A DNA stretch of 42,182 bases from Nitrospirota bacterium (GTDB taxonomy: Bacteria > Nitrospirota > Nitrospiria > JACQBZ01): NCBI GenBank assembly GCA_016201865.1, contig JACQCA010000085.1, forward strand, positions 1-42,182, in the 5' to 3' direction. Shown here in pieces: positions 2,729-17,681 of the stretch. Every line of letters begins with the position of its first letter. Position 1 is the stretch's first letter. Position numbers and translations under genes: made by a program. Under the pieces are notes generated by a model that made no database searches, was not told the origin of the DNA, and worked only from the letters and a program-made list of their open reading frames with translations.

Positions 2729-2752
2729 CGTGAAGACCCCACGGCGTCACCG

Positions 2753-3034: not shown

Positions 3035-3065
3035 CTAAAACCCGCGGCAAACCCGAGGGAGCCAC

Positions 3066-3140
3066 CCAGCGAGCAAAGCGAGCGAGAGGGGGAGGCTCCA
3101 TCCGGCTTCGCCGGTGGAGGGGGCGACGTGAGCCCCTATA
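3066..3140 (-). repeat. Interspersed palindromic repeat, family A copy 1
   Basis: In minus orientation this reads TATAGGGGCTCACGTCGCCC, then a CTCCA-CCGGC hairpin with its mirrored half ending TGGAG, then CTCCCCCTCTCGCTCGC and a further CGCTCGC. Related copies are at 10060-10138, 37721-37919 and 40382-40455. This copy ends 3 bp from the 3' CCA of tRNA-Pro. The three hairpin-forming blocks resemble REP/BIME-type elements. Confidence 0.8.
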
Positions 3141-3143
3141 AAT

Positions 3144-3220
3144 TGGTCGGGGCGCGCGGATTTGAACCGCGGACATCCAGCTCCCGAAGCTGGCGCGCTA
3201 CCGGGCTGCGCTACGCCCCG
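3144..3220 (-). tRNA. tRNA-Pro (anticodon CGG)
   Basis: The acceptor stem CGGGGCG / CGCCCCG, the anticodon stem CCAGC / GCTGG with 7-nt loop TTCGGGA (anticodon CGG), the T-loop TTCAAAT and an encoded 3' CCA (plus TGG at 3144-3146) are all visible. The total length is 77 nt. The first 10 nt of the tRNA (3211-3220) are also the last 10 nt of the ald reading frame. The tRNA is most likely cut out of the ald transcript. Confidence 0.95.
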
Positions 3221-4326
3221 ATGAATTTCGGATTTTCGTATTTCATCCCATGCGCTTCGGCCACGCCCGGATGCGTGACCTTTCCTTGATAAACATTCAG
3301 CCCTTTGGACAGCGCCGAGTCATGGCGACAGGCCTTCAACACCCCTTCGTCCGCCACTTTTAATATATAGGGAAGCGTGACATTGCCCAACGCCGCCGTC
3401 GCCGTTCTTGGAAAGGCCCCCGGCATATTCGCGACGCAATAATGGATCACGCCATCCACCACGTAAACCGGATCCGAGTGCGTGGTCGGTCGAGAGGTCT
3501 CGATGCAGCCGCCCTGGTCGACGGACACATCAATGATGACGGAACCCTTCCGCATCCCGGCCACTAAATGCCGGCCGATGAGCTTCGGGGCCTTGGCCCC
3601 GGTCACCAGCACCGCGCCGATCACCAGATCCGCGCTTAAGACCGCCTGCTCGATCAAGTCCGGCCTCGAAACCCGCAGTACGATCTTCCCGCCGACCGCC
3701 GCCTCTAAATTTTGGATGCGGTCCGTTTCCCGATGGAATAGAGTGACCTGGCCGCTCAGCCCCACCGCCATTTGAGCGGCGTTTGTTCCGACCGTCCCGC
3801 CGCCCAAGATCACCACGCGGGCCGGCGGCACGCCCGGAATACCCGGAAGAAGCACGCCGCTTCCGCCGTGGATCTTCTGCAGATAGAAGGCGCCCATCAG
3901 GACCGACATCCGACCGGCGATCGCGCTCATCGGCTTAAGCACCGGAAGCGATCCGTCCGGCAACTGGATCGTCTCGTAGGCGATCGCGGCGATCTCCCGT
4001 TCGAGAAGCGCCTCGGTCAACGACCGATCGGCCGCAAGATGCAGAAAGGTAAAAAGCGTCTGGCCCTTTTGAAACAGGGGATATTCCGAAGCCAGGGGCT
4101 CCTTGACCTTTACAATCAATTCGGCCTCGCCGAACAACCGCGCACGGTCGTTGACGATTTTCGCGCCGGCCGCAAGATAGGCCTGATCGGAGTAACCGCC
4201 ACCTTCGCCGGCGCCGGACTCCACCAAGACCCGATGGTCCGACCGGACGACGGTGCCGGCCGCCTCCGGCGTCATTGAGACGCGGTATTCGTGGTCCTTG
4301 ATCTCTTTGGGAACCGCAATGATCAT
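3211..4326 (-). CDS. ald: Alanine dehydrogenase
   Basis: This enzyme interconverts L-alanine and pyruvate plus ammonia using NAD(H), in the cytosol. The 371-aa length matches the family (~370). Catalytic and substrate residues sit at the positions known in characterised Ald proteins: R15, K75 and H96. A Rossmann motif GGGTVGTNAAQMAVG lies at ~175-188. Motifs IIDVSVDQGGCIETSRPT and NMPGAFPRTAT are also typical. The promoter is TTGACA-18-TATTCT at 4339-4368, whose predicted start point is only about 5-6 nt before the ATG, with no Shine-Dalgarno, so the mRNA should be nearly leaderless. The stop codon (3211-3213) lies inside tRNA-Pro. Confidence 0.95.
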   Translation of the reverse strand: MIIAVPKEIKDHEYRVSMTPEAAGTVVRSDHRVLVESGAGEGGGYSDQAYLAAGAKIVNDRARLFGEAELIVKVKEPLASEYPLFQKGQTLFTFLHLAADRSLTEALLEREIAAIAYETIQLPDGSLPVLKPMSAIAGRMSVLMGAFYLQKIHGGSGVLLPGIPGVPPARVVILGGGTVGTNAAQMAVGLSGQVTLFHRETDRIQNLEAAVGGKIVLRVSRPDLIEQAVLSADLVIGAVLVTGAKAPKLIGRHLVAGMRKGSVIIDVSVDQGGCIETSRPTTHSDPVYVVDGVIHYCVANMPGAFPRTATAALGNVTLPYILKVADEGVLKACRHDSALSKGLNVYQGKVTHPGVAEAHGMKYENPKFIGA

Positions 4327-4423: not shown

Positions 4424-4771
4424 CTAAGGGGACGTCACCCGGATCTGGTAGCCGCCGTAAACGCCGGCCGAAGGCGGGGCGGAGGGAGAGCGTCTCACGC
4501 GAACATAGTAGGTGCCGCTTGTCGAGGGCGTGAAGACGATTTTGGAAGACAGGGTCGTTGCATCATTCGGGGGACAGTTGCTGACCTGCGCGATCGGATT
4601 CACGCCGCAGATGCTGCTGTAGGTCACCCCGTTGATGTTGTCGTTGGTCACCAGAGGAGGCGCCGCACCGCTATGATGACTTCCGCTCCCACAACCCTGA
4701 AGCGTCAGTCCGACAACTCCGATCATGGAAAGACTCATCACAAGCATCGAACAGGCTCGCCGTCTTCTCAT
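4424..4771 (-). CDS. Lipoprotein carrying the second half of a PPC-like domain
   Basis: This is a 115-aa protein. Its arginine-rich start, hydrophobic stretch and LTLQGC with Cys27 look like a lipoprotein signal. The C-terminal part (~70-115) reads DATTLSSKIVFTPSTSGTYYV, then a VRVRR and a final YQIRVTSP. That is the second half of a bacterial pre-peptidase C-terminal (PPC) beta domain. The first half of such a domain ends the upstream metalloprotease. The ATG overlaps that gene's TGA (ATGA), so translation is coupled. It probably sits on the outer face of the envelope. Function is unknown. Confidence 0.65.
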   Translation of the reverse strand: MRRRRACSMLVMSLSMIGVVGLTLQGCGSGSHHSGAAPPLVTNDNINGVTYSSICGVNPIAQVSNCPPNDATTLSSKIVFTPSTSGTYYVRVRRSPSAPPSAGVYGGYQIRVTSP

Positions 4772-6234
4772 GGTTGACCCCCCTCGATGAGCCCCGTGTT
4801 GTCTGTTGCTCTTTGACTTTTCGCCACAACATTCCCATTGCCGTCCAGCACCTCGATGAAGGTATCGGCCCCGTTGGTGAGGCCTGATGTCTCGATGGTA
4901 TAAGTCGTTCCGGCCGCGGCCGGGAAGCTCACCTGATCCGTATCCCCGGCCGGGTACAGGGTATGGGTCTGAGGCGCGACGTTGACTGCGATGGGCACGG
5001 CCGTCGCCGCCGTATCATCCGGCTCAAAACCGTCCACCGCAAGCGCCATCTTCCGGTCGGCCACCAAGACCGCCATTTCGGCCGGTGATCCATGATTGGC
5101 GGTCGCGCAGACCGGACAATTGAACCAGCCGTCCCAGAAATCCTCAAAGCTCACGTTCGTAATGCCGCAGGCGGCGCAGGTGAAATAGTGGGCGATCACA
5201 TCCCAGATGGGCGTCATACCGGCCGAGACGGCGTCCGTCCCGGCAACGTTGGCATAGCTCTCGAACGGTGTGGTATCGAAGATGTCCCACAAGGCGGCCG
5301 CGACTGAGATTTCATTCGTCGTATAAACGGCATCTGTCGGCAGCGTGGGAAGCGTGACCGAGCTTAGATCTTCAAGATTGAAGGAAAGGCTGGCCGCCGA
5401 ACCGACCGTGTCCACGTATAAGGGATCATTCCGCGCGGCGCTCGAGAAGAAATCGCCCCAGCCCTCCGACCAGGAAAGACGGATATCCTGGGTGTTGTCG
5501 TTTAAATAATGGATTCCGTCGGGGGAGTCGTCGCGGGAATAGACCGAAGCCGCGAAATGACCGAACTCGTGGGTGAGAACGGCATCGTCATATTCATCCG
5601 TATCGCCGTCGGTGCATCCGCCCAGCACATGAATCGAATGATCGGCCGGATCAAAGTAGGTCCCGTCGCAGGAGCCGGCGGACCAGAAAACCGTCAACGG
5701 CGGCAGCGCCGCGGCCGTCAAGCTGTTGACGAACTCGGCCGCGGAGATCATCACATCTAAAAGATTGAATGCGCCTCCCCCGTTCGTCGTCGTCGCCGTG
5801 AGATCCCGGGTAAAGGTCATTCCCGTTGAGTCATCGATCGGAGGTGAGGTAACGGAATAGAGAGAGCTGGAAGGGTTTAAGATCTGAACCTGACCGGCGG
5901 CGATGATCGTGCCGGCCAGCACCCGTATATACACAACGGCCGGGCCGGTGTTCGTGAAGGTCACACTGTAATAGCCGTTGACATCACTCGCGTCGGCGGC
6001 GTTTAAAACCACGGCATCCGAGTTTCTTACAACCTGGACCGTGGCAAAACGGATCGGCTTTTTCGGCAGCGCGCCGGTGAATCCGTTTTTGTCGAAGGCC
6101 TTGTCTTCATACTGGAGGAGTCCCGTGACCGTCACCAGGGAGCCGGTGCCGCCACTACCCGGAAGGATTATGAGAGCAGCCATGAACAGAACGAGAAAGC
6201 GGGCGATTCGAGCAGATACGAACCGGCCGCGCAT
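4768..6234 (-). CDS. Exported zinc metalloprotease-like protein with truncated PPC domain
   Basis: I place the start at 6234 because GGAGAGAA precedes that ATG; a longer frame runs from 6273 (501 aa; residue numbers here use the long form). A signal segment lies at ~23-45, then an Ig or carboxypeptidase-regulatory-like domain (~48-120) and a zincin core with HEFGH at 235-239. About 30 residues later comes SEGWGDFF, resembling the third-ligand motif of gluzincins such as fungalysin (EGWSDFF). From ~415 the protein has the first half of a PPC domain (DGFEPDDTAATA, then FIEVLDGNGNVVAKS) and stops there. It lies downstream of the T2SS operon, so it is a likely secreted substrate. Specificity is unknown. 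Confidence 0.75.
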   Translation of the reverse strand: MRGRFVSARIARFLVLFMAALIILPGSGGTGSLVTVTGLLQYEDKAFDKNGFTGALPKKPIRFATVQVVRNSDAVVLNAADASDVNGYYSVTFTNTGPAVVYIRVLAGTIIAAGQVQILNPSSSLYSVTSPPIDDSTGMTFTRDLTATTTNGGGAFNLLDVMISAAEFVNSLTAAALPPLTVFWSAGSCDGTYFDPADHSIHVLGGCTDGDTDEYDDAVLTHEFGHFAASVYSRDDSPDGIHYLNDNTQDIRLSWSEGWGDFFSSAARNDPLYVDTVGSAASLSFNLEDLSSVTLPTLPTDAVYTTNEISVAAALWDIFDTTPFESYANVAGTDAVSAGMTPIWDVIAHYFTCAACGITNVSFEDFWDGWFNCPVCATANHGSPAEMAVLVADRKMALAVDGFEPDDTAATAVPIAVNVAPQTHTLYPAGDTDQVSFPAAAGTTYTIETSGLTNGADTFIEVLDGNGNVVAKSQRATDNTGLIEGGQP

Positions 6235-6288
6235 TTCTCTCCATTGCAAATGACCGCTCATCAATCGGATCATCCGGGCTTGTCCTGT

Positions 6289-6807
6289 TTATTTGACCAT
6301 TGGATCGCTTGGAAGCGGGATCTCAAGGATTGATTGCCCGCCGGGGCCCGGCCGCTCGCGCAAGCGAGACTTCGGTTTGGTGGGGTTCAGATCGAGCGTC
6401 AGAACGGCAAGACGGCTGACCTGAGCCCCGTTCGGCAGCGTCAGCGTGGCCTTTCCCTTCACTTCGATCTGAGGGATTGAAGGATTGACCGGCTCCGGCC
6501 GGACGGTCATCGTCACGGTGTGACTTTCCTCCTTGGCCAGCGTCCCGGTCCAGACCGTCTCGCCGTTGACGAGCCGCATTCCTTCCGGCAGCACCGCAAC
6601 GACCGTCACCGATTCAGGCTGGACCAGCGGCGTGACGGTCAATGTGATCGTCATCTCGGACCCGACCGCAACCGGGCCTTCCGCGCCGAACTGCAACCGG
6701 ATCGGAACCTGAGGTTTCCCGATCACACCGCCGTCGCCGGCGACGGCATCGACCGAGGCCGTCGCAACGATCGCAAGCAGCAGAAAATAGAATCTCATGA
6801 CATCCAT
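6289..6807 (-). CDS. Exported hypothetical protein with DUF11/Ig-like beta domain
   Basis: This is a 172-aa protein. Residues 1-24 are a signal peptide (MDVMRFYFLLLAIVATA, cleavage near VAG). Residues ~45-140 alternate like a beta-sandwich: MTITLTVTPL, VTVVAVLPEGM, SHTVTMTVRPE and GKATLTLPNGA, similar to DUF11/CARDB-type domains. The C-terminus is basic then Gly/Pro-rich. An AAAGGA Shine-Dalgarno precedes the ATG. The gene starts just after gspK, with a CRP-like palindrome and a TATTAT -10-like box in its upstream region, and it is followed 15-55 bp later by the metalloprotease gene. A role as partner or chaperone of that protease is only a guess. Confidence 0.6.
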   Translation of the reverse strand: MDVMRFYFLLLAIVATASVDAVAGDGGVIGKPQVPIRLQFGAEGPVAVGSEMTITLTVTPLVQPESVTVVAVLPEGMRLVNGETVWTGTLAKEESHTVTMTVRPEPVNPSIPQIEVKGKATLTLPNGAQVSRLAVLTLDLNPTKPKSRLRERPGPGGQSILEIPLPSDPMVK

Positions 6808-6885: not shown

Positions 6886-7833
6886 CTACTCGATCTGCCA
6901 CGAAACAAGTTTTGTTTTAGTCCCTTCCCGAAAGATCATGGCCGTGGCGATCTTCTCGGTATCGTGCATGATCCCATGAGACTTGACCGTAAAGTAGCTG
7001 CTCTTGACACCAACCTTCCTTCGGCAGGATGGGTTGGCCAGGCAGTCCGTTGGGCAGCCGACCCAAGTAGCGTTATTTATCATCTCATATGGCCGTCCAT
7101 TCTGGATGCAGATCGCGGTGTCATGATCGATATTATTACCGTCCAGCGCCTGTAAAACCGGCAGGCCGGCCGTATTGATATTGATCGGGTTAGTCAGCAT
7201 GGAAACCGTCGTCAGATAGGGACGGACTTTCCGATAGATCTCCGGCGTCACCCCTTTCACCAAGAGCAGTTCCGAGAGAGTATCCATCGGAGCCTTCTTG
7301 CAATGATACGGCGGATCAAGCCGCTGATAGTAGGAGTCTTCGTCGCAGTCGAGGGACGCCGGGTCCACCCAGTGCTTGATCGCCTCGACGATCGGGTCGA
7401 TCTGACCGGATTCAATTTCCAGAACCCCCAAGAGTCGTTTCAACATCTCCTTGGTGTCGCCGCTCACGCTGGTGTCCTTAACCCCTAGACGGTTGACGTC
7501 GATCTTTCCGCCTTCATCCGTAATCTCGCCCGACACAACTCCCTCACCGACCGGAAGTGAAAGCAGCTGGGCCCAGAACTCGTCCGGCCCGTCATAGCCC
7601 GGGCTATTCTTGGCGTCGTCCTTGAGCACGGCCCGTGCCGCGGTCACGCCCGATTTGGCCAGATAGGTCGCCCGCACATCGTCTCGGAAATTGGCGGCCG
7701 TCATCAGATCCACCTTGGCCCCGTAGTCAAACTCCACGATCACGGCAACCATTAAAACCAGGACGACCAGCGTCAGAAGCAGCGCAATGCCGCGTTCGTC
7801 AGCAAGGTAATTTTTTATTTTCAAAGCCGACAT
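6886..7833 (-). CDS. gspK: T2SS minor pseudopilin GspK
   Basis: This is the tip pseudopilin of the T2SS, capping the I-J-K complex in the inner membrane/periplasm. The protein has 315 aa. Its prepilin-like N-terminus has G15 followed by IALLLTLVVLVLMVAVIVEF. As usual for GspK, the +5 Glu is absent (Leu). The large periplasmic part contains DEGGKIDVNRL, a family hallmark, and SAM-like segments around LSELLLVKGVTPEIYRKVRPYLTT and ININTAGLPVLQAL. It is the last gene of the gsp operon here rather than following gspJ directly. Confidence 0.92.
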   Translation of the reverse strand: MSALKIKNYLADERGIALLLTLVVLVLMVAVIVEFDYGAKVDLMTAANFRDDVRATYLAKSGVTAARAVLKDDAKNSPGYDGPDEFWAQLLSLPVGEGVVSGEITDEGGKIDVNRLGVKDTSVSGDTKEMLKRLLGVLEIESGQIDPIVEAIKHWVDPASLDCDEDSYYQRLDPPYHCKKAPMDTLSELLLVKGVTPEIYRKVRPYLTTVSMLTNPININTAGLPVLQALDGNNIDHDTAICIQNGRPYEMINNATWVGCPTDCLANPSCRRKVGVKSSYFTVKSHGIMHDTEKIATAMIFREGTKTKLVSWQIE

Positions 7834-7852
7834 AACTCTGTTACAATCCCGC

Positions 7853-8425
7853 TCATCCCGTCCGCTCGTACGTGCTGACGAGAAAGGTCACGTCTAAGAA
7901 TTGCGGATTGGCATAGCGCGTGCGGAAATGCAGGTTCTTGACCCTCAGGACATGCGGGGCCTGCTCGATCGAAGAGAGAAATTTCACGGCTTGATCCAGC
8001 GTGACGTTCTCGATCTTGATCTCAACCGAGGTCTCGCGATACCGGTCCACGACCACGCCCGACTGCGGACGCATGTAGGCGATTTTGGACCGGACGTCGG
8101 CGTTGCCGGCCAACGACTCCAAAAACGAGAGCAGTGAAAATTTCCCCTCGTCTTTCCGGATCCGTTCGTCCAGCGAGCCGGTCTGATTCTTAAGCCGGAC
8201 ATATTCCTTTCGGACCTGATCCAGCGTGACCAGGGCCTCCTCCTTCTGACGGATCAGCCGGTCCAGCCCCCGCATCCGGTCCCCATACCAAGAGGCTGTC
8301 GAGAGAATCCCATAAAGGAGAATCCCGCCCGTCGCGACGCCTCCGATCATCAGATAGAGCCTCTCGCGGGCCGTGATGCGGTCGCGGCCGAGACGGGCCA
8401 AGACCTGTTGAAGAAAGGCCTTCAT
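7853..8425 (-). CDS. gspM: T2SS inner-membrane protein GspM
   Basis: This is a 190-aa single-pass protein: a short cytoplasmic start, a transmembrane segment ~26-46 (LMIGGVATGGILLYGILST), a coiled coil (~52-95, DRLIRQKEEALVTL) and a periplasmic ferredoxin-like domain. It partners with GspL in the assembly platform. The ATG overlaps the stop of gspL (8422-8425, ATGA). Family similarity is low in sequence but the size, topology and position between gspL and gspK support the call. Confidence 0.85.
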   Translation of the reverse strand: MKAFLQQVLARLGRDRITARERLYLMIGGVATGGILLYGILSTASWYGDRMRGLDRLIRQKEEALVTLDQVRKEYVRLKNQTGSLDERIRKDEGKFSLLSFLESLAGNADVRSKIAYMRPQSGVVVDRYRETSVEIKIENVTLDQAVKFLSSIEQAPHVLRVKNLHFRTRYANPQFLDVTFLVSTYERTG

Positions 8426-10047
8426 GCGGGCGGCCTCCCCGACTCCCGCGGCGACAGCGTCACGGTCAGACGGAAGCGCACCCGGGATTGGTCTGCGCTG
8501 ACTTTGGCGTCGCTGACCGTCACGTCTTTGAAGGCCTCAAACTGTCCCAGCGAGGCCTTGATCTTGTCCACCGACTCGAAGCTGTCCGTCTCGGCCTCCA
8601 GGCGGAACCGGCCGGATTCGATCATGAGGTCCTGAACCTCGATCTTGATCGAGGAAGGCACCCGACGGCTCAGTTCGGCCACGACCTCCAACGGCGTCAG
8701 GTCGCCCGTCCCGAACAGCGCCGATTTCTTTTTCATCTCGGCGACGGCCGTCTTCGCCTGCTGGACTTCGTCCACGATCGTCTTGACCTCCGGGAACATC
8801 GTCCGGAATTGTTCGCGGACCCGGGTCTTCAACGCCTGGTATTGGCTCATCTGAAGGCTGTATTTCAGATAGAGATCCGCCCCCGCCAGCATCGCGACTA
8901 AAAGGGCCGCGATCCAGAGGAAGCGGTTGCGCGCCCTCGACCCGACCCGTTCGCGGCCGTGCGCGAATTCGCCTTTGCGGAAGTTCATCCCCGATTCGGC
9001 GACGGGATTCGCGCCTCTCAACGCCAGTCCCAGGCCGACGGCAAACGCCGGATCCCACGACGCCCCGTTGCCCGAAACGATCTTGGGAGCGCGCCCCGTC
9101 ACCTGAAGGCCCAGCTCGGTCGCCAGGTAGGATCCCAGGCCTTTGAGCTTGCCTCCGCCGCCGTAAAGGACGAGTTCCGTGACGGTCTTTTGCCCGGCCG
9201 ACGGCTCGCCGGCCTGAGCGACATGAAACGTCCGGATCAGTTCGGCCGTCAGCGGCTCCAGCGCGCGACGGATCGTCTCGGAAACGCCTTTTTGATGAAG
9301 GCGGGAGATGCCGGAATCGTCGAGGCCGGCCTGTCGTTTCCATTCCTCGGCCTCTTCAATCGAAATCCCGCAGGCCTCGGCCAGCGCCGTCGTCATGTCC
9401 CGCCCGCCCCACAGGATCGTCCGCAGAAAGGCCGCCCGGCCCCGGCGCAGGATGCCGATGATGGTTTTGGAGGCGCCGATGTCCAAGACCGCCGAAACCG
9501 GATCTTCCCCGGCCCGCGCGCCCGGCGCGGATCGTTCCGGAAACGTATGGCGCATCAGGTGGATCAAGGCCATGCCGTCCAGTTCGACCCATTCGGGATC
9601 GATTCCGGCGCGGGCCAGTTGGTCCAGATAATGTTTCACGAGGCTGCGCGGCGCGGCCGCCGCCAGGAGATGCGTCTTCCCATCCGTCGTATCGACCGCA
9701 TGATAATCCACCACGACCTCTTCGAGCGGATACGGAAGCAGCGCCTCGATCTCGAACGGAACGACCTTTTCGAGTTTTCGGGCATCGCTGAATGGAAGCG
9801 TCAACGCGCGAAGCGACATCAGATGGACGGGAAGGGAGACCACGACGCGATCCGCCGGCCGTCGGTGTTCGGCCAGGAATTCCCCCAACCCCGGAATCGT
9901 TTCTTTTCCCCAATCCAACGGGCCGCCCGCTGGGGGTATATCTTTCTGGTATCCACCCGTCCACTCCAGCCCCATCAGCCCCTTTCGCAGAGAAACCGCT
10001 TTCAGGGAGAAGGAGCCGAGATCAAGACCTAAGATCTGTTGCGCCAT
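8422..10047 (-). CDS. gspL: T2SS protein GspL (PilM-like actin fold plus PilN-like periplasmic domain)
   Basis: This 541-aa protein links the GspE ATPase to the assembly platform. Residues 1-~355 are a cytoplasmic PilM/actin-like ATPase-fold domain beginning QQILGLDLGSFSLKAVSL, with AVLDIGASKTIIGIL and LVLYGGGGKLKGLGSYLA as the nucleotide-binding-like blocks. A transmembrane segment lies at ~383-400 (FLWIAALLVAMLAGADLYL). It is followed by a coiled coil and a PilN/ferredoxin-like periplasmic domain to the end. It therefore resembles a fusion of type IV pilus PilM and PilN. Repeat element A copy 2 lies immediately upstream, inside the operon. Confidence 0.87.
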   Translation of the reverse strand: MAQQILGLDLGSFSLKAVSLRKGLMGLEWTGGYQKDIPPAGGPLDWGKETIPGLGEFLAEHRRPADRVVVSLPVHLMSLRALTLPFSDARKLEKVVPFEIEALLPYPLEEVVVDYHAVDTTDGKTHLLAAAAPRSLVKHYLDQLARAGIDPEWVELDGMALIHLMRHTFPERSAPGARAGEDPVSAVLDIGASKTIIGILRRGRAAFLRTILWGGRDMTTALAEACGISIEEAEEWKRQAGLDDSGISRLHQKGVSETIRRALEPLTAELIRTFHVAQAGEPSAGQKTVTELVLYGGGGKLKGLGSYLATELGLQVTGRAPKIVSGNGASWDPAFAVGLGLALRGANPVAESGMNFRKGEFAHGRERVGSRARNRFLWIAALLVAMLAGADLYLKYSLQMSQYQALKTRVREQFRTMFPEVKTIVDEVQQAKTAVAEMKKKSALFGTGDLTPLEVVAELSRRVPSSIKIEVQDLMIESGRFRLEAETDSFESVDKIKASLGQFEAFKDVTVSDAKVSADQSRVRFRLTVTLSPRESGRPPA

Positions 10048-10059
10048 GATCCACCAATC

Positions 10060-10138
10060 ATAGGGGCTTGCGTCGCCCCCTCCATCCGCCTAAGGCGGAA
10101 TGGAGCCTCCCCCTCTCGCTCGCTTCCGCTCGCTGGGG
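10060..10138 (+). repeat. Interspersed palindromic repeat, family A copy 2 (inside the gsp operon)
   Basis: The blocks are TAGGGGCTTGCGTCGCCCCC, then CTCCATCCGCC-TAA-GGCGG-A-ATGGAG (an 11-bp stem), then CCTCCCCCTCTCGCTCGC and a CGCTCGCTG end. This copy fills the 105-bp gap between gspN and gspL and should form strong RNA hairpins in the operon mRNA. Confidence 0.8.
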
Positions 10139-10152
10139 AGACACTTTAATTA

Positions 10153-11136
10153 TTATTGACCCGGCCCGCGCGGCCCGATGGTCGGGAGTCGGGGCGGTTC
10201 GCCCGCCCGTCCGGTTCCGACCGGCAGACCGGCGCCGCCGATTCCGACGGAAGCGAACGGCGTTCCGTTCAGATAAGGCGTCGGACGCCGCAAAACGCCG
10301 CGAAGCGCAAAATCGAAATGGCCGTCCGGCGGGGCCATCGCGGACAGAAACGCCAGCGGACCGGTCGGCTTGCGTAGCGTGACACGCGAATTAAAATTCA
10401 GCAGGCTGTCCATCACATCCGGCCTCAACAGAAGGCTTCCACTGCCCGCCAGGTCCAGGGCATCTCCCTGCGCCGAGAAATTCTCCAGATTGCCCATCCC
10501 GCCTTTGAAGCTCATGCTTCCGTTCATCCGCGAAAATTGAATCTCCCAACGCTTCGATCCAACACCCGTCGCCTCCAAGGCCAGGACCCCCTGTCCCTGC
10601 AGAACGTCCCCGTTCATCCAGTCGTGCTCGATCCGACGGATCAGGATCGTGCCGCTCACGTCGTTCGACGGAAGACCGAATCCCTCCGCCAGTTTTTTGA
10701 GATCCAGTCCCTTGCCGCTTCCTTCCAGACGGTATTTCATCCCCAAGGCCGCCCGCCGGACCGTCAGACGGCCGCGGGCCTCGCCCCCCAAAGTCTGCAC
10801 GACTAGGTCCAGATCCCAATGCCGCCGAAGGATCGCGCCGATCGGCCAGCCGACCGAGATTTCTTCCGCCGTCCAAAGGACCGGGACGGGATGCTCCACG
10901 CGGCTCACCGTCACCCCCTTCCAGACCAGACGGAACGGAAATCGAACCTCGCTCTTCCGGACGGAGATCTCAAGGGCCGCGGCCCGTTCGACCTTGATTC
11001 GTATCCAATCCGACAGCTTCGACCAGGGAAAGGTCAAATAAACAAAGACCGTAACGGTGACGACGGCCGCGGTCGCGTATCCGATCGCCGTGATCAGAGC
11101 AGCCTTATGACGATTGAACCATTCAAAGAACCGCAT
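10153..11136 (-). CDS. gspN: T2SS protein GspN
   Basis: I start at the ATG at 11134-11136 (MRFFEWFNRHK), six bases after the gspJ stop; the frame is open further upstream only as a shadow of gspJ. The 327-aa protein has a transmembrane segment ~16-34 (GYATAAVVTVTVFVYLTF) and a periplasmic AsmA/GspN-like domain with VERAAALEISVRKSEVRFPFRLVWKGV. GspN is an accessory T2SS protein found in some lineages. The C-terminal 25 residues are Gly/Pro-rich. Its place between gspJ and gspL is typical of Nitrospirota and deltaproteobacteria rather than of enterobacteria. Confidence 0.82.
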   Translation of the reverse strand: MRFFEWFNRHKAALITAIGYATAAVVTVTVFVYLTFPWSKLSDWIRIKVERAAALEISVRKSEVRFPFRLVWKGVTVSRVEHPVPVLWTAEEISVGWPIGAILRRHWDLDLVVQTLGGEARGRLTVRRAALGMKYRLEGSGKGLDLKKLAEGFGLPSNDVSGTILIRRIEHDWMNGDVLQGQGVLALEATGVGSKRWEIQFSRMNGSMSFKGGMGNLENFSAQGDALDLAGSGSLLLRPDVMDSLLNFNSRVTLRKPTGPLAFLSAMAPPDGHFDFALRGVLRRPTPYLNGTPFASVGIGGAGLPVGTGRAGEPPRLPTIGPRGPGQ

Positions 11137-11141
11137 TCGGG

Positions 11142-11783
11142 CTACGACGTCTGGCCGACGGGAATATCGGTCTGTGTGGTGAACTGCCGCTCCCGGCCCG
11201 AGGGATCCAAAAAGAAGATCTGGATCTCGACCGCCTTCGGTAACTTTCTCTGATCCTGAGCATCGGCGTTCCATTCATCTGCCCATTCTTTTCCGTCGAA
11301 GTATCGGAAGTTCAGTCCGATCACCCGTTCGGCCAGTTCATATCGTTCCAGGCTCTTCTCCGAGAGGAGGTTTGTCTCTTCGCCGTGCATCAAAACGGCC
11401 ATCCCGGTATCCGGAACCGCCATCAGCTCATACTTCACGGCCGACAGGGTCGGGTCCATGATCCCCTCCGACACCCTCGCATGGGAAAGCGTCGTGAACT
11501 TGAGCGTATCCGAAGGCTGCGCTCCGCTCAGACCGTCCTCCCCGATAAAAAGGAAGGACGTCGATCCGCTCGGCGGACGCCAATACGCCGACCGGAGTTC
11601 ATTCGCCATGATCCCCAGACTGCTTCGGGCCATCTGATCGATCTCGGTCGCCTCATCCACCTGCCGCGTGGATCGAAGCACGGCATTGAAGGTCTCATAC
11701 AGGATCGCCATGAGCACGGCGACGATGCTCAGCGCCACCAAGAGTTCAATCAAGGTGAATCCCTCTCGATCCCTCAGCGGCAT
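11142..11783 (-). CDS. gspJ: T2SS minor pseudopilin GspJ
   Basis: The start is ATG at 11781-11783, giving MPLRDREGFTLIELLVAL; the longer frame would add residues overlapping gspI. The prepilin cleavage site is G8/F9, with Glu at +5 (E13) and an N-methylation-type hydrophobic helix. The periplasmic part contains MARSSLGIMANELRSAYW, a typical GspJ block. The 213-aa length is normal. GspJ forms the pseudopilus tip with GspI and GspK. It sits 2 bp from gspI. Confidence 0.9.
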   Translation of the reverse strand: MPLRDREGFTLIELLVALSIVAVLMAILYETFNAVLRSTRQVDEATEIDQMARSSLGIMANELRSAYWRPPSGSTSFLFIGEDGLSGAQPSDTLKFTTLSHARVSEGIMDPTLSAVKYELMAVPDTGMAVLMHGEETNLLSEKSLERYELAERVIGLNFRYFDGKEWADEWNADAQDQRKLPKAVEIQIFFLDPSGRERQFTTQTDIPVGQTS

Positions 11784-11785
11784 CT

Positions 11786-12208
11786 TCACTTTTCTTCCAT
11801 CATATACGTCACGAGATCCATCGAGTCTTGCCGCGAACCCTCCCTCCAATGCACTTCCAGCTTCACCTCCCGGGCGTAATCAAACGGCGTTGAATCAACG
11901 GTCTGGGTCCAACTAAACATGGCGTCCGGTTCCGGAAAATCCCCGCTTGAGATCCCAAGCGGGGGGAAGCCCGCCATTTCCGACTCCGAGATCTTCTGCT
12001 GGGCCAGAAGGGTCGCCCGGGTGATGTATTGCGCCTCGTGATGCTGGAGGATGTCGCGGTTTCGAAGTCCGAGAAGAACGACGAAGGTCACGGCTAAGAT
12101 GGACAGCGCCGCCATCACTTCGATCAGGGTAAAGCCCGCCCGTCCGGAAGGCGGGCCGAGCTGCGTGTCGAAAACGGTCTTACTTAATCTCTTCCCGATA
12201 CCCTTCAT
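11786..12208 (-). CDS. gspI: T2SS minor pseudopilin GspI
   Basis: This is a 140-aa prepilin-like protein with an unusually long leader: cleavage is predicted at G25/F26 (RAGFTLIEVMAALSILAV) with Glu +5 at E30. The periplasmic part has YITRATLLAQQKISESEMAGF, characteristic of GspI (the conserved A..LA..KI/ME block). It initiates the pseudopilus tip. The start codon overlaps gspH by 29 bp; an internal start would leave a shorter leader, so the exact start is uncertain. Confidence 0.88.
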   Translation of the reverse strand: MKGIGKRLSKTVFDTQLGPPSGRAGFTLIEVMAALSILAVTFVVLLGLRNRDILQHHEAQYITRATLLAQQKISESEMAGFPPLGISSGDFPEPDAMFSWTQTVDSTPFDYAREVKLEVHWREGSRQDSMDLVTYMMEEK

Positions 12209-12704
12209 ATACCGTCACCCGAGCCGTAATCGGATTGATCGCCAGCGTCAGGACATGTTGATTCCGGTCCGTCAAATGCAAAAGGGTCTTGTCCACCCGT
12301 CTCAACGGATAAAAATCGGTATAGGCCTCGCCCAGCGTCACCTTGCCCTGGCGCAACGTAGCCACGTCCTTAAATTGAACCGTCTCGGGAAGGGTCGTGC
12401 GCGCCGATCCATCGGACGTCACCGGGTTGAATTCGCCCTCCGCCGACCGGCTCGTCACCCAGTACTCCTGACGGTCCAAGTCATAATTCAGACGGTAGAC
12501 CCGCTTCGTGGCCGCGGCCCGGTCGGCCAGAAAATAGACCGTCCGGACGAGGTGACGGGCCGCAAGCTTGAGCTCGTCCTCGGTCAAGCGCTGAAGCGTC
12601 GGAAACGCCAAGGCCGCGACCACTCCGAGAATCAAGAGCACGACGGCCAGCTCGATAAAGGTAAAGCCTCTTTTAGTCCAGATTCCAGCTTTCCACATCG
12701 GCAT
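12180..12704 (-). CDS. gspH: T2SS minor pseudopilin GspH
   Basis: This is a 174-aa prepilin-like protein with cleavage site G13/F14 (KRGFTFIELAVVLLILGVV) and Glu +5 at E18. The helix is followed by LAARHLVRTVYFLADRAAATKRVYRL, the conserved GspH/FimT-like block. The beta-rich end carries RITARVTVYEG-like strands. It overlaps gspG by 32 bp and gspI by 29 bp, as expected in a tightly packed operon. Confidence 0.88.
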   Translation of the reverse strand: MPMWKAGIWTKRGFTFIELAVVLLILGVVAALAFPTLQRLTEDELKLAARHLVRTVYFLADRAAATKRVYRLNYDLDRQEYWVTSRSAEGEFNPVTSDGSARTTLPETVQFKDVATLRQGKVTLGEAYTDFYPLRRVDKTLLHLTDRNQHVLTLAINPITARVTVYEGYREEIK

Positions 12705-13119
12705 CCTTCCCGTCCCCGCCCGGCTCGCCGTCGCCTCCGTAACTGATCAGGTCGAAATCCCCGTGACCGCTCGGACTGATATAGACGTAGTCATGCCCCC
12801 AGGGATCCTTCGGCAACTTGGGCAGGTATCCGCCCTCCCGCCAGTGTTGCGGGATCACCCCGATCGTGGGGCTCGTGACCAAGGACGACAGGCCCTGTTC
12901 CGTAGACGGGTAAAAACCGTTGTCGAGTTTGTAGAGATGGAGGCCTTCTTCGATATTCTTGATCTGGACCTTGGTCGCGGTCCGTCGGGCCTCATCCGTC
13001 CGGCCCATGATTTTGGGAACGACGATCCCGGCCAGAAGCGCCAGGATGAAGACGACCACCATGATTTCGATCAGGGTAAAGCCGGCTTGATGCGCATTTT
13101 TAACAATGGGACGTTGCAT
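12673..13119 (-). CDS. gspG: T2SS major pseudopilin GspG
   Basis: This is the main subunit of the periplasmic pseudopilus, 148 aa. The prepilin site is G13/F14 with E18, in QAGFTLIEIMVVVFILALL. GspG hallmarks follow: VVPKIMGRTDEARRTATKVQI, LYKLDNGFYPSTEQGL, LPKDPWGHDYVY and the C-terminal calcium-site loop DLISYGGDGEPGGDGKDAD. It needs a prepilin peptidase (GspO/PilD) for processing, which is not encoded here. Confidence 0.97.
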   Translation of the reverse strand: MQRPIVKNAHQAGFTLIEIMVVVFILALLAGIVVPKIMGRTDEARRTATKVQIKNIEEGLHLYKLDNGFYPSTEQGLSSLVTSPTIGVIPQHWREGGYLPKLPKDPWGHDYVYISPSGHGDFDLISYGGDGEPGGDGKDADVESWNLD

Positions 13120-13121
13120 TC

Positions 13122-14384
13122 CTACCTCACAATCTGACTCAATTCGAAAATCGGAAGAAGAATGGCCAGCACAATAAACAGGACGACCCCTGCCATCACC
13201 AGCGTCATGACCGGCGTCAGAAGAGCCGTCAGCGTGCCGATGGTCGCCTCCACCTCGTGGTCATAGGCCTCGGACACCTTGATCAACATCGGCTCCAGCT
13301 CGCCGCTCTTCTCGCCGATCCCGATCATGTACGTCACCAGCGGGGGAAACATCCCGCTCTTTCGGAGCGGCTCGGCCAGACTCTCCCCCTCGCCGATGTT
13401 CTGCCGTGCGCGGTCGATCGCCTCGGCCATGACCGTATTCTGGACCACGTTTCGCACCACATCCAGCGCCGGAAGCAGCGGGACGCCGCCCGTCAGCAGC
13501 GTGCTGAGCGTCCGGGTAAAGCGCGAGATCGCAACTAAAAGGGTCACGCGGCCGACGACCGGAACCCGAAGCAGGAACCGATCATACCGCGCGCGGCCGG
13601 CGGGCGTTTTAATGTATTGTTGGAGCCCGAACAGGCCGAAGAGGCCCGACATCAGGACGGCCCACCAGTACCGGTTCAAGAAATGGCTCATGGCAATGAG
13701 CGCCACGGTCGGCCATGGAAGGACCTGATGCACCTCCTCAAAAATCAGCGTGATCTTGGGAACGATAAAGGCGACCAGTGAAAACAGAATCAGACCGCCG
13801 ATGATCACCATGAAGATGGGATACGTCAGCGCGGCGACGAGTTGGTTCCGGAGACGGACCTGGTATTCGAGGTAATCCGCAAGTCGGAGGAGCATCCCGT
13901 CCAGCATGCCGCTGGCCTCGCCGGCCCGCACCATGTTGACGTAGACTTCCGAAAATACCGACGGGTATTGCGCCAGCGCCGACGCAAGGGAACTGCCCTC
14001 CTTCACCCGCTCCCGAACCTCCGCCACGATCCGCTTCAACTCGCCCTTCTCGAGTTGATCCATCAGGGCCGTGAGGGCCTCCATCAACGGAAGCTTGGCC
14101 GCCGTCAGGGTGGCGAGATGACGGGTCAGGAAAGCGACCTCCATCAAGCCGGCGCGTTCCACCACCCGAATCCGGGACAGCCGGGAGAGAGGCTGGCCGG
14201 GACGTTCCGCCCGAGTCTCCGAGCCGAATCGGTGCGCCGACTCCCCGGCGCCTTCCACGACATGAGTGGGATAGACCCCGGACTGGCGCAGCTTGACCCG
14301 CGCGGTTTTCGGGCTGTCCGCATCAATGATCCCGGACACATCCCGGCCCTCGGTCGTCAGGCCTTTGTATTCATAAACCGGCAT
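13122..14384 (-). CDS. gspF: T2SS inner-membrane platform protein GspF
   Basis: This is a 420-aa polytopic protein. It has an N-terminal MPVYEYKGLTTEGRDVSG block, two homologous T2SSF domains (~90-215 and ~290-415) and three hydrophobic segments (~190-215, ~240-260, ~390-412). Conserved features include FTRTLSTLLTGGVPLLPALD and the C-terminal GTLTALLTPVMTLVMAGVV. It forms the cytoplasmic-membrane platform that couples GspE to the pseudopilus. The gap to gspG is 2 bp. Confidence 0.96.
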   Translation of the reverse strand: MPVYEYKGLTTEGRDVSGIIDADSPKTARVKLRQSGVYPTHVVEGAGESAHRFGSETRAERPGQPLSRLSRIRVVERAGLMEVAFLTRHLATLTAAKLPLMEALTALMDQLEKGELKRIVAEVRERVKEGSSLASALAQYPSVFSEVYVNMVRAGEASGMLDGMLLRLADYLEYQVRLRNQLVAALTYPIFMVIIGGLILFSLVAFIVPKITLIFEEVHQVLPWPTVALIAMSHFLNRYWWAVLMSGLFGLFGLQQYIKTPAGRARYDRFLLRVPVVGRVTLLVAISRFTRTLSTLLTGGVPLLPALDVVRNVVQNTVMAEAIDRARQNIGEGESLAEPLRKSGMFPPLVTYMIGIGEKSGELEPMLIKVSEAYDHEVEATIGTLTALLTPVMTLVMAGVVLFIVLAILLPIFELSQIVR

Positions 14385-14390
14385 GCCCTG

Positions 14391-16103
14391 TTACTCCATG
14401 ACCAGCTCTTCTTGGGTGACGCGAAGAATCTCTTCCACCGTTGTAACGCCGCTCACCACCTTCCGGGCCCCGTCGTCCCGAAGCGTCCGCATCCCCTTTT
14501 CGACTGCGCGATTCTTGATCCGATTGGCATCCAGCTTGCTCAAGATCATCTGCCGGACCTCGTCGTCGATTAATAAAATTTCGTAGATCCCGGTCCGGCC
14601 GTGGTATCCGGTCCGCTTGCATGGGTCGCAGCCGACCGCCCGGTAAAAGGTCGGCCGCACCGTCGCGGTCTTAAACCCCAGCTTGGCGAGTTCCTCCGGC
14701 GTGGGCGTGTAGGCCTGCCGGCAGTCCAGGCAGAGGCACCGGATCAGCCGTTGCGCGATGATCGCGATCACGGAAGAGGAAACGAGGAAGGGCTCGATGC
14801 CCATGTCCAGAAGACGGGTGATGGCGCCGGCCGTGTCGTTGGTGTGAAGCGTTGAGAAAACCAGGTGACCCGTCAGCGAGGCATGGATCGCGATCTCGGC
14901 CGTCTCGACGTCCCGGATCTCGCCCACCATGATCACGTCCGGATCCTGACGGAGGATGGACCGCAGACCGTTGGCAAAGGTCAGATTGATCTTGGGGTTG
15001 ACCTGCATCTGCCCGATCCCCTTCAACTGGTACTCGATCGGGTCCTCAATCGTGATAATGTTTTTGTCCGGAGAATTAATCCGGTTGAGCGCCGCGTAGA
15101 GGGTCGTGGTCTTCCCGCTGCCGGTCGGGCCGGTCACGAGCACGATCCCGTGGCTCATCTGGATCAACTGGAGCATCGTATGCCGTTCTTCCGCCGTCAG
15201 ACCGATCTCCTCCAGATCCAAAAGGCTTGTGCTCTTGTCCAGGAGCCGCAAGACCACCCGTTCGCCGTGGGCCGTGGGAATGACCGAGACGCGGATATCG
15301 ACATCCCGACCGGCGATTTTGATCCCGATCCGGCCGTCCTGGGGCAGCCGCTTTTCGGCGATGTTCAATCCGGCCATGATCTTGATCCGAGAGATGATGC
15401 TGGACTGGAATCGTTTCGGCGGCGACAGGATTTTGTACATGATGCCGTCGATCCGGTAGCGGATTTCCAGATCGCGCTCAAACGGCTCGATGTGAATGTC
15501 GCTCGCCCGGTCCTTGACGGCCTGGAACAACGCGGAGTTCACCAACCGGATGATCGGCGCCTCGTCCGTCGCCTCCAAGAGATCCACCGGCTCCGAAAGC
15601 TCGCTGGCCAAAAGGTCCAGGCTCTCGGCGCTCAGGTCTTCGATCACCTGTTGCGCCGTATCCGAGGCGCGGTCGTACATCTGGTTGATGCAGTTGAGGA
15701 TCGCCTTGGCGGGCACCAGGACCGGACGGACGTCGCGGCCCAACAACGCCCGGACGTCGTCCAGCGCCGTCAGATGGAGCGGATCGGCCACGGCCGTCAT
15801 CACCGGGCCGTTTTCCTCGCGGATGGGAAGGAGTTCGTATCGTTTCGCAAACCCGATCGGGATTTTCGACAGAAGCGCCGGATCCACCTGAACCGGCAGC
15901 AGATCCGGAAGGCAGGGAAGACGGAACTGGAGACCCAGGGCATCGAGGATCTCGCCTTCCTTGACGGCGCGCATCCGAACCAGGATCTCGCCGAGGCGTC
16001 CCCCTTTTTCCCGCTGAAGGGCCAGGGCGTCCCGGATCGCCTCCGCCGAAACGGCAAACTTGTCTTGAAGAATCTGGCCGATGCGCTTCCACGGGCTGGA
16101 CAT
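14391..16103 (-). CDS. gspE: T2SS ATPase GspE
   Basis: This is the cytoplasmic motor ATPase, 570 aa. N1E/MshEN-like domains lie at ~1-150. The ATPase core has Walker A GPTGSGKT at 325-332, an Asp box around IITIEDPIEYQ, a Walker B-like region DPDVIMVGEIRD and a His box STLHTNDTAGAITRLLDMG. The zinc tetracysteine is CLDC...CDPCKRTGYHGR. All key residues are present, so an active enzyme is expected. The gene is 9 bp downstream of gspD and 6 bp upstream of gspF. Confidence 0.97.
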   Translation of the reverse strand: MSSPWKRIGQILQDKFAVSAEAIRDALALQREKGGRLGEILVRMRAVKEGEILDALGLQFRLPCLPDLLPVQVDPALLSKIPIGFAKRYELLPIREENGPVMTAVADPLHLTALDDVRALLGRDVRPVLVPAKAILNCINQMYDRASDTAQQVIEDLSAESLDLLASELSEPVDLLEATDEAPIIRLVNSALFQAVKDRASDIHIEPFERDLEIRYRIDGIMYKILSPPKRFQSSIISRIKIMAGLNIAEKRLPQDGRIGIKIAGRDVDIRVSVIPTAHGERVVLRLLDKSTSLLDLEEIGLTAEERHTMLQLIQMSHGIVLVTGPTGSGKTTTLYAALNRINSPDKNIITIEDPIEYQLKGIGQMQVNPKINLTFANGLRSILRQDPDVIMVGEIRDVETAEIAIHASLTGHLVFSTLHTNDTAGAITRLLDMGIEPFLVSSSVIAIIAQRLIRCLCLDCRQAYTPTPEELAKLGFKTATVRPTFYRAVGCDPCKRTGYHGRTGIYEILLIDDEVRQMILSKLDANRIKNRAVEKGMRTLRDDGARKVVSGVTTVEEILRVTQEELVME

Positions 16104-16112
16104 GGACGACGA

Positions 16113-17681
16113 CTACCTCTTGTCCTGCGGCGGGTTGATGCTGTTCAGAAATTGATAATTCGGTGTCTGATCTTTCAAAGTCCCTTCCGATATCGCCCGT
16201 TTCATGACATCGCTCTTTTGCTGCAGCAACGCATCCAGCTCCTGGTTTTCACGCACAACGTGCGGAGTGAGAAAGATGAGGAGATTTGATTTGGTCGCAT
16301 GCTTCGACTGAAATTTGAACAACCAACCGATCAGCGGGATGTCCCCTAACAGCGGGATTTTCGACTCGACCCGGCTGACGTCATCCCGCATCAATCCTCC
16401 GATCACAACCGTTTGATTCGTGGAGACGATCACCGTCGTCGTGGCCTCCCGCTTGTTCGTGGTCGGCCCCAGCTCGACCAGAACCGTCTGCGGCGTCTCG
16501 GCCAGGCTCGAGATCTCCTGGCGGACATCCATTCGAACCCGATCCCCTTCGAGAATCTCCGGCGTCAGTTCAAGCGTCACACCCACGTCCTGCCGGCTGA
16601 TCTGCCGCTGCGTCACGCCGCCCGTGACCTGGCTGCTGCCGGTCACAAACGGAACATTCTGGGCCACCACAATCTTGGCCTTCTGGTTGTTGGTTGTCAG
16701 GATCTGGGGCGTGGACAGCACATTGACATCCGATGAGCTCTGCAATGCCTTCAGAAGCACCTTGACATTAACGGTGCTGACGCCGATCTTGATGCCGGTG
16801 ATACTCGTCAGGGCCGCGATATCCTCCGGCGCCTCATTGAACCCGCCATAGGCCGTCAGATCCTTATTAGGCGACTGGTAACCGGCCACCGCCCCCAACG
16901 TCGTTCCCAGTTCTCGAAGTTTGTCCTGGCTCACTTCCATGATCACGGCCTCGACGTAAACCTGGCGGCGTCTTACGTCCAGTTTTTTGATCACCTCTTT
17001 GAGCATTTCATAATCTCGGGTCGACGCCGTGATCAGCAGAGCGTTGGTGGCCTTATCCGGAATGATCTGGATCGTGCCCTCGAATTCCCCCGGCGATTTA
17101 ATGACCGGCCGGCCGGCGGCGGGCGGCGCTCCGGTGCGGGTCACGAGGGAGGTCAAGAGTTTCGTCAACTCCTCGGCATTGGCATTCTCAAGATAGTAAA
17201 CATTGATATTCCGTTCCGGCGGGACTTCCGATACCGGAAGGATCTGGACCATCTCCCCCGTTGAGACGGCCGCGAGGCCCTTGATATCCAGAACGGACAG
17301 GAAAACCTGGTAGACTTTGTCTACGGAAATTTTGGCAGGTGAAAAGATCGTCACCTTCCCCCGCACGCGTTCATCAATGATGAAATTCTTGCCGATGATC
17401 TCGCTGACGAACTTCACGAACACCGGCAGATCGACATTGTTGAAATCGAGGGTGATCAACCGATCCTTTGCCGACTTGACCGGGACCGGTGCGGGCGCTG
17501 TCGGCGTCACAGGCGTCGGCGAGGCAGGCAGCGGAGGAGGCGGAGGCGGGCCCCCGCCGGATTCCGGAGATTGAGCCGCCGCCGGCGGGGTCGGGATCAG
17601 GCAAACGGCCAAACCGATGACGATCCGAAAAAGAAGAACCGGAACGGATATCGGGCCGGACGACCCGTTAACGAATCTCAT
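16113..17681 (-). CDS. gspD: T2SS outer-membrane secretin GspD (short form)
   Basis: This forms the outer-membrane exit channel. The 522-aa length is short for GspD (usually 600-750). Residues 1-37 are a signal peptide, ~40-68 a Pro-rich linker and ~74-150 the N0 domain (LDFNNVDLPVFVKFVSEI, DERVRGKVTI). A single KH-like N domain occupies ~158-236 (NVYYLENANAEELTKLL, IPDKATNALLITAS). The secretin domain covers ~240-490 with VYVEAVIMEVS, LLGDIPLIGWLFK and LLIFLTPHVV. The usual chain of N0-N1-N2-N3 seems reduced to N0 plus one domain. No lipobox is present, so a pilotin or the ExeA system may handle outer-membrane targeting. Confidence 0.94.
   Translation of the reverse strand: MRFVNGSSGPISVPVLLFRIVIGLAVCLIPTPPAAAQSPESGGGPPPPPPLPASPTPVTPTAPAPVPVKSAKDRLITLDFNNVDLPVFVKFVSEIIGKNFIIDERVRGKVTIFSPAKISVDKVYQVFLSVLDIKGLAAVSTGEMVQILPVSEVPPERNINVYYLENANAEELTKLLTSLVTRTGAPPAAGRPVIKSPGEFEGTIQIIPDKATNALLITASTRDYEMLKEVIKKLDVRRRQVYVEAVIMEVSQDKLRELGTTLGAVAGYQSPNKDLTAYGGFNEAPEDIAALTSITGIKIGVSTVNVKVLLKALQSSSDVNVLSTPQILTTNNQKAKIVVAQNVPFVTGSSQVTGGVTQRQISRQDVGVTLELTPEILEGDRVRMDVRQEISSLAETPQTVLVELGPTTNKREATTTVIVSTNQTVVIGGLMRDDVSRVESKIPLLGDIPLIGWLFKFQSKHATKSNLLIFLTPHVVRENQELDALLQQKSDVMKRAISEGTLKDQTPNYQFLNSINPPQDKR

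What the first reader, a model, noticed from the sequence alone, without database searches (positions are those of the whole stretch)
4424..6234. PPC domain split between a metalloprotease and the overlapping lipoprotein gene
The protease ends after the first half of a PPC-type beta domain. The next gene, overlapping by ATGA, begins with its own lipoprotein-like signal and ends with the second half (SSKIVFTPSTSGTYYVRV). The two halves could rejoin at the cell surface, anchoring the protease to a lipoprotein, or the pair may be a gene broken by insertion of a signal segment. I know of no described case of this arrangement.
Basis: partly seen in the sequence, partly recalled or inferred. Interest (0 to 1): 0.55.

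Follow-up and report, generated by a model that had tools for sequence, protein, structure and literature searches.

The report
Protease domain split onto lipoprotein anchor
In one draft bacterial genome, a secreted protease that its relatives make as a single lipid-anchored protein is encoded as two overlapping genes, so that half of its tail domain, together with the lipid anchor, sits on a separate small protein; if the halves pair up, it is an unusual natural way to tether an enzyme to the cell surface.

Summary
The protease ORF (4768-6273, minus strand; likelier start 6234) ends after strand five of a PPC-type beta-sandwich. The next ORF (4424-4771, ATGA overlap) encodes a lipoprotein signal, then the last three strands. 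Of 32 relatives aligned over this domain, 30 carry it whole in one ORF and 2 are cut by contig ends. The window has about 170 extra bases in the domain's longest loop, carrying a ribosome-binding-site-like run, a start codon and a lipobox.

A second change makes this more than a broken gene: 38 of 41 homologous ORFs have a lipobox on the protease itself (the other 3 lack a readable N-terminus), while the window protease has serine at the cysteine position. The lipid anchor seems to have moved from the protease to the second half of its own domain. That half shows no excess divergence, and read in cis the halves are predicted to form the whole sandwich.

The genes follow a type II secretion cluster with GspN. 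Best explanation: a non-lipidated protease held at the surface by a lipoprotein that completes its PPC domain (0.45). Gene decay and assembly error are not excluded; no second example was found in the genomes searched.

The parts
4768..6273 (-). thermolysin-like metalloprotease ORF, 501 aa (likelier start at 6234, 488 aa), ending in PPC strands 1-5
   Evidence: relatives; fold of the G004 relative; HEFGH and SEGWG motifs fall in invariant or nearly invariant columns
6154..6156 (-). codon AGT (Ser40 of the 501-aa reading) at the position where homologues have the lipobox cysteine; context LPG-S-GGTGS
4771..5031 (-). first half of the PPC domain at the protease C-terminus, from GFEPDD, with a 17-residue tail not seen in the aligned relatives
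4646..4821 (-). extra segment in the PPC loop (176 bases as delimited, about 170 net against G004; 2 mod 3)
   Evidence: no second copy in the own genome; only matches of 16-23 bases in the six other family genomes
4778..4785 (-). Shine-Dalgarno-like GAGGGGGG, six bases upstream of the second start codon
   Evidence: sequence itself; not tested functionally
4424..4771 (-). lipoprotein ORF, 115 aa; ATGA overlap with the protease
4691..4771 (-). lipoprotein signal peptide and lipobox LTLQGC (Cys27), followed by GSGSHHS
   Evidence: lipobox pattern; chance estimate; G/S count
4427..4645 (-). second half of the PPC domain (NDN loop, cysteine loop, strands 6-8)
   Evidence: 50 of 73 residues identical to the C-terminus of the G004 protease; codon-position differences; model
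6289..6807 (-). small exported DUF11-like gene, next to the protease in many relatives
   Evidence: DUF11 below cut-off; adjacent at E<=1e-6 in 12 of 18 fetched loci
6886..17681 (-). type II secretion cluster upstream in the same direction: K, PilO/M-like, L, N, J, G, F, E, D identified
   Evidence: Pfam; GspN, TIGR04411, E 1.1e-27

Best explanation
This lineage inherited a surface lipoprotein metalloprotease with a C-terminal PPC beta-sandwich, encoded next to a type II secretion system that has GspN. A segment of about 170 bases in the long loop of the PPC domain ends the protease early and gives the rest of the domain its own ribosome-binding-site-like run, start codon and lipoprotein signal; the protease has serine where relatives have the lipobox cysteine. 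(These sequence facts are shown.) Inferred: the protease is exported without a lipid, the small protein is lipidated and goes to the outer membrane, and the halves pair non-covalently (strands 1-5 with strands 6-8), so that the sandwich is completed in trans and the protease is held at the surface by the lipoprotein. Translational coupling through ATGA would keep the two chains near one to one. Which change came first, and whether the segment came from another gene's start or from a lost tandem copy, is not settled.
For: Continuous domain in 30 of 32 aligned relatives, the other 2 cut by contig ends. No other free-standing second half among 28 matches in 25 of 269 class genomes or 29 matches in 21 of 395 phylum genomes (15 candidates scored per genome at most); other short frames run into contig ends. 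Lipobox in 38 of 41 listed homologous ORFs (32 strict, 6 relaxed pattern), 3 without readable N-terminus; none in the window protease. The moved half does not diverge faster: its identity to 11 outgroup sequences is at least that of the intact G004 half in 8 of 11 (14 of 35 relatives used). Differences by codon position to G004 in the lipoprotein's frame are 0.22/0.15/0.53 over 73 codons. The break falls in the loop between strands 474-476 and 514-517 of the G004 model, where ten-residue blocks dip to pLDDT 65-83 in a model of mean 89.1. Read in cis, the blocks holding the strands reach 91-97 except the one with the end of strand 5 (71) and the loop before the last strand (87); the joining stretch is at 46-56. 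That model matches PPC structure 5sv5 with TM 0.75 to the target. GspN lies beside the gene pair; GspN is needed for surface transport of T2SS lipoproteins elsewhere (PMC12802150: abstract, passages and part 1 of section 10 seen).
Against: One genome only. The cis model is steered by the alignment of intact relatives (33 sequences) and cannot show that separate chains pair; Foldseek gives it no match at E<=1e-3, the best being 1.2e-3. One relative (L024/L092, G025) has no PPC domain at all, and PPC domains are usually cleaved off mature proteases (PMC3327674, passages), so half a domain may not matter. G004 and G002 agree better with each other in the second half (41/52) than the window does with either (50/73, 36/52), as expected for sister genomes but not proof of full constraint. 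The time of the split is unknown, so lack of acceleration may only mean that it is recent. No signal peptidase I prediction was run for the altered protease signal, and by eye no good site is seen. The G/S-rich stretch after the lipobox is also found in unrelated lipoprotein-like ORFs of these loci.
Confidence: 0.45

Rival explanations
1. Gene decay or neutral breakage: the extra segment truncated the protease, the catalytic part still works alone, and the small lipoprotein is a passenger that folds poorly and is degraded. The missing lipobox cysteine is part of the same decay or makes the enzyme freely secreted.
For: One relative has no PPC domain at all (L024/L092, G025). PPC domains are usually removed from mature proteases (PMC3327674, passages). 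Seen in one genome only.
Against: The catalytic ORF is fully open with conserved motifs. The second half is about as conserved as in intact relatives and keeps codon-position bias. A start, lipobox signal and in-frame junction together arise by chance in about 1 of 1,000 stretches.
Confidence: 0.28
2. Artefact: an assembly chimera or an indel error near the junction. A short homopolymer lies just before the stop codon, and the lipoprotein frame is open for 81 codons upstream of its start, so a length error could divide one longer frame.
For: Draft genome in 97 contigs. The open frame of the second ORF is 196 codons. Homopolymer in the sequence. No reads were available.
Against: Even undivided, a segment encoding a whole lipoprotein signal would still lie inside the domain, and the serine at the lipobox position lies elsewhere. 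The junction is 4.6 kb from the nearer contig end. The segment has no second copy in this genome, although a chimera with another organism's DNA would not show up that way.
Confidence: 0.15
3. The small lipoprotein is an independent protein with its own role (for example binding a T2SS part or substrate), and the protease no longer needs the rest of its domain.
For: It has its own signal and a ribosome-binding-site-like run. Lipoproteins that serve T2SS exist (recalled).
Against: Its mature part is little more than a loop and three strands of a sandwich, no relative was found with it as a free gene, and it sits in the position of the missing half.
Confidence: 0.12

Closest known systems
Lipoprotein thermolysin-like protease with C-terminal PPC domain of Nitrospirota relatives (G004, the same contig as JACQFA010000020.1, L031)
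   Same: Same catalytic part (236/360 identical), same PPC sequence on both sides of the break, same neighbouring small gene and gspK
   Different: The relative is one chain with an N-terminal lipobox; the window has two chains, with the lipobox on the second
Dentilisin (PrtP-PrcA-PrcB) of Treponema denticola
   Same: A protease whose mature form lacks its own lipid is proposed to be held on the outer membrane by separate lipoproteins of the same operon (PMC8167434, passages)
   Different: Subtilisin family; in those passages PrcA and PrcB are not halves of a protease domain; the lipidated end of PrtP is removed by processing rather than absent from the gene
T2SS surface lipoproteins PulA and InvL (GspN-dependent)
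   Same: T2SS with GspN, G/S-rich stretch after the lipobox (PMC12802150, passages and part of section 10)
   Different: Lipid and working part are on one chain
PPC-bearing M4 protease E495
   Same: Thermolysin-family enzyme with C-terminal PPC domains; these bind protein substrate (PMC3327674, passages)
   Different: Whole PPC domains in one chain, soluble secreted enzyme
Engineered split beta-domains such as SpyTag/SpyCatcher (recalled, no call)
   Same: A beta-sandwich divided into two chains that reassemble
   Different: Engineered and covalent; here natural and, if it pairs, presumably non-covalent

Membership tests
PPC domain (PF04151) | Full-length profile match above the curated cut-off in one chain | tested here: not met
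   Two complementary partial matches, 1-49 and 36-69 of 70, below cut-off; 26.0 bits for the first half in the genome scan
PPC domain (PF04151) | Jelly-roll sandwich like solved PPC/collagen-binding domains | tested here: inconclusive
   Met for the G004 relative and for the two window halves read in cis; not testable here for two separate chains
Thermolysin-like (M4-type) metalloprotease | HExxH plus downstream Glu and thermolysin-like fold | tested here: met
   HEFGH and SEGWG present, in invariant or nearly invariant columns; aureolysin and thermolysin-type enzymes are the best PDB matches of the G004 model, though TM to the whole query is only 0.32-0.34 and there is no Pfam M4 match
Bacterial lipoprotein (signal peptidase II substrate): small ORF | Basic n-region, hydrophobic stretch, lipobox Cys | tested here: met
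   MRRRR...IGVVGLTLQGC fits the strict pattern; no trained predictor was run
Bacterial lipoprotein: window protease | Lipobox Cys | tested here: not met
   Ser at the position; first Cys is residue 202
GspN-dependent T2SS surface lipoprotein | T2SS with GspN in the genome | tested here: met
GspN-dependent T2SS surface lipoprotein | More than four Gly/Ser (or Asn/Asp) just after the Cys | tested here: met
   CGSGSHHS, five Gly/Ser; weak, since by my tally of the rows 15 of 35 family members meet it and so do some unrelated lipoprotein-like ORFs
GspN-dependent T2SS surface lipoprotein | Surface exposure lost without gspD or gspN | not testable with these tools
   needs a cultured host

The most novel reading that the evidence does not exclude
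A natural two-chain protease in which one beta-sandwich domain is completed in trans by a lipoprotein, so that the membrane anchor of an enzyme has been transferred during evolution from its own N-terminus to the detached second half of its C-terminal domain.
Probability: 0.4. Interest if true: 0.68.

Novelty: new variant of a known kind. Interest (0 to 1): 0.5.

Why it matters
If true, it shows a route by which a one-chain surface enzyme becomes an enzyme plus a separate anchor: a signal placed in a permissive loop, and loss of the old lipidation site. It would give a natural split point in the PPC domain, an accessory domain found in several families of secreted proteases, usable for docking enzymes on cells. 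It would also make testable whether a type II secretion system can move a lipoprotein and its non-lipidated partner as one folded complex.

Tried and rejected
Rejected: a simple frame error dividing an otherwise normal gene, because about 170 extra bases lie in the loop. Rejected: the segment as a repeated element of this genome; beside itself it has one match of 25 bases at 88%, and in the six other family genomes only matches of 16-23 bases. Weak: short similarity between the protease tail and the NDN loop, which might hint at a tandem-copy origin (0.059 of shuffles score as high); not used. A first lipobox filter was badly set and missed most homologues; it was replaced, where the pattern was sought near the N-terminus of each open frame without fixing the start codon. 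In one search the first pattern hit of one L039 ORF is a different cysteine, so its row there is not meaningful. NCBIfam gave nothing meaningful for the protease or lipoprotein. The promoter and terminator scan showed nothing at the junction. The PDB sequence search with the family alignment matched positions 19-133 of the profile only (mostly Ig-like domains), not the protease domain. Literature: nine searches; among the rows listed, titles and abstract starts only, none describes a PPC domain divided between a protease and a lipoprotein. Listings were capped, and the library holds open-licence PubMed Central papers only.

Dropped rows: L002, L003 and L005 as copies of L031-L033. L043-L046 (distant) appear but not in the listing (E cut-off 1e-15). 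L015, L023 and L027 have no readable N-terminus and are not among the 38. The alignment left out L015, L023, L024, L027 and L040-L042; that further left out L033 and L010 (cut by contig ends before or in the domain); that further left out L032 and L026. One search used 14 of the 35 relatives. The G006 relative, closest in the catalytic part (191/273), ends at a contig edge before the PPC domain and says nothing about the split.

Full report
What is there. The window is a whole 42,182-base contig of a 2.47 Mb draft genome in 97 contigs. That it belongs to Nitrospirota, class Nitrospiria, is inferred: three genomes of its own family in the kinship table (G004, G002, G006) have contigs of the same lengths as named Nitrospirae/Nitrospiria records found. 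On the minus strand an ORF of 501 codons (4768-6273; likelier start 6234) is followed, with ATGA overlap, by an ORF of 115 codons (4424-4771). The first is a metalloprotease with HEFGH and SEGWG motifs; the second starts with a lipoprotein signal.

The split. The Pfam PPC profile matches the two proteins in complementary pieces (1-49 and 36-69 of 70, both below cut-off). Relatives were found in 27 of the 58 genomes searched first (own genome included) and in 16 loci of the species collection. Of the 32 relatives aligned over the domain, 30 carry it through in one frame and 2 are cut by contig ends. One relative, L024/L092 of G025, ends before the domain and has none of it. A DNA alignment with G004, G002, G009 and G008 shows the window carrying extra bases between the codons for NGNVVA and NDN: 176 as delimited, about 170 net, 2 mod 3. 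The extra segment holds a 17-codon tail for the protease, a GAGGGGGG run six bases before ATG, and the lipoprotein signal.

Is it unique? The lipoprotein searched against 269 class genomes gave 28 matches in 25 genomes; all except the window's own cover only the domain half of the query, in long frames or at contig ends. A profile of the second half searched against 395 genomes drawn from the phylum gave 29 matches in 21 genomes, with at most 15 candidates scored per genome; the one new short frame, L119 with 280 codons, is a protease cut by the contig end. I found no second case.

The anchor. Of 41 homologous ORFs listed, 38 have a lipobox near the N-terminus (32 by the strict pattern, 6 by a relaxed one) and 3 have no readable N-terminus; the window protease has none. 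Its signal ends LPG-S-GGTGS, with AGT at the cysteine position; GGTGS resembles the Gly/Ser-rich stretch that follows the cysteine in many relatives. The missing lipid site on the protease and the lipid site on its detached half occur in the same genome and in no other that I looked at. That coincidence is the strongest argument that the split is more than damage.

Constraint. Identity of the second half to G004 is 50/73, to G009 41/65, to G008 42/70; the intact G004 half gives 39/65 and 36/70 against G009 and G008. Over 11 outgroup sequences the window half is at least as similar as the G004 half in 8. Against that, G004 and G002 agree better with each other (41/52) than the window with either. 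Differences by codon position are 0.22, 0.15, 0.53 against G004 (73 codons), like those of the catalytic part, 0.26, 0.21, 0.49 (361 codons). This shows coding constraint over much of the divergence; it cannot date the split.

Structure. The G004 relative models well (mean pLDDT 89.1, pTM 0.88, 35 sequences). Its catalytic part is thermolysin-like and its C-terminus matches PPC/collagen-binding domains (aureolysin E 9.0e-8; 1nqd_A TM 0.78 and 5sv5 TM 0.70 to target). The break of the window falls in the loop 477-513, after five strands and before three. Read in cis, the window's own halves give strands 12-16, 22-29, 35-40, 48-53, 59-64 and 154-157, 163-171, 183-190, with a low-confidence joining stretch (mean pLDDT 79.9, pTM 0.71), and resemble PPC structures (5sv5 TM 0.75 to target, prob 1.00, E 1.6e-3). 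This says that the sequences of the halves remain compatible with one sandwich. It does not show that two chains pair.

Setting. Upstream in the same direction lie type II secretion genes D, E, F, G, J, N, L, PilO/M-like and K. T2SS genes adjoin or lie near the protease in 5 of the 18 fetched loci that hold it (G004, G002, G009, G006, G008), and the small partner gene adjoins it in 12 of 18 (some loci are cut by contig ends). GspN is needed for surface transport of T2SS lipoproteins in Acinetobacter and of PulA in Klebsiella (PMC12802150: abstract, passages and part 1 of section 10). The ancestral protease therefore looks like a T2SS surface lipoprotein (inference). In the window the lipoprotein that could take that route is the small one, with five Gly/Ser in the seven residues after its cysteine; this motif is weak evidence because it is common.

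How it most likely works. Shown: sequence arrangement, relatives, anchor change, constraint. Inferred: coupled translation, export of both chains, lipidation of the small one, pairing through the divided sandwich, surface retention. A functional parallel exists in dentilisin, where the mature protease lacks its lipid and partner lipoproteins of the operon are proposed to anchor it (PMC8167434, passages). Rivals are decay, artefact and an independent small lipoprotein. PPC domains are usually removed from mature proteases (PMC3327674, passages), which is the best argument for decay.

Verdict. It is a new variant of a known kind (surface protease with PPC domain), resting on one draft genome.

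Noticed in passing
window 6289-6807; L077-L094: A small exported DUF11-like protein gene lies next to this protease in 12 of 18 fetched loci (E<=1e-6), whether or not T2SS genes are near; it may be a dedicated partner.
   Followed up: partly
L092 (G025:C67) 2193-3587: A relative of the protease ends before the PPC domain, and the next gene in the same direction begins 38 bases on, so the domain can be lost outright.
   Followed up: partly
L034 5602-7488 and 8074-9993; L038; L039: Three gammaproteobacterial loci carry two of these proteases close together on one strand, a possible source for divided genes by duplication and deletion.
   Followed up: no
L093 (G050) 9430-11336: The protease relative is divided between two frames in the catalytic region in a 3-contig genome; whether by sequencing error or not was not checked.
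   Followed up: no
L078 3149-4039: In G002 an ORF for a lipoprotein-like 296-aa protein on the opposite strand lies between the gspM-like gene and gspK.
   Followed up: no
window 4778-4785: The run of G before the second start codon is both the likely ribosome-binding site and a short homopolymer close to the stop codon of the protease; slippage or length variation there could change the ratio of products.
   Followed up: no
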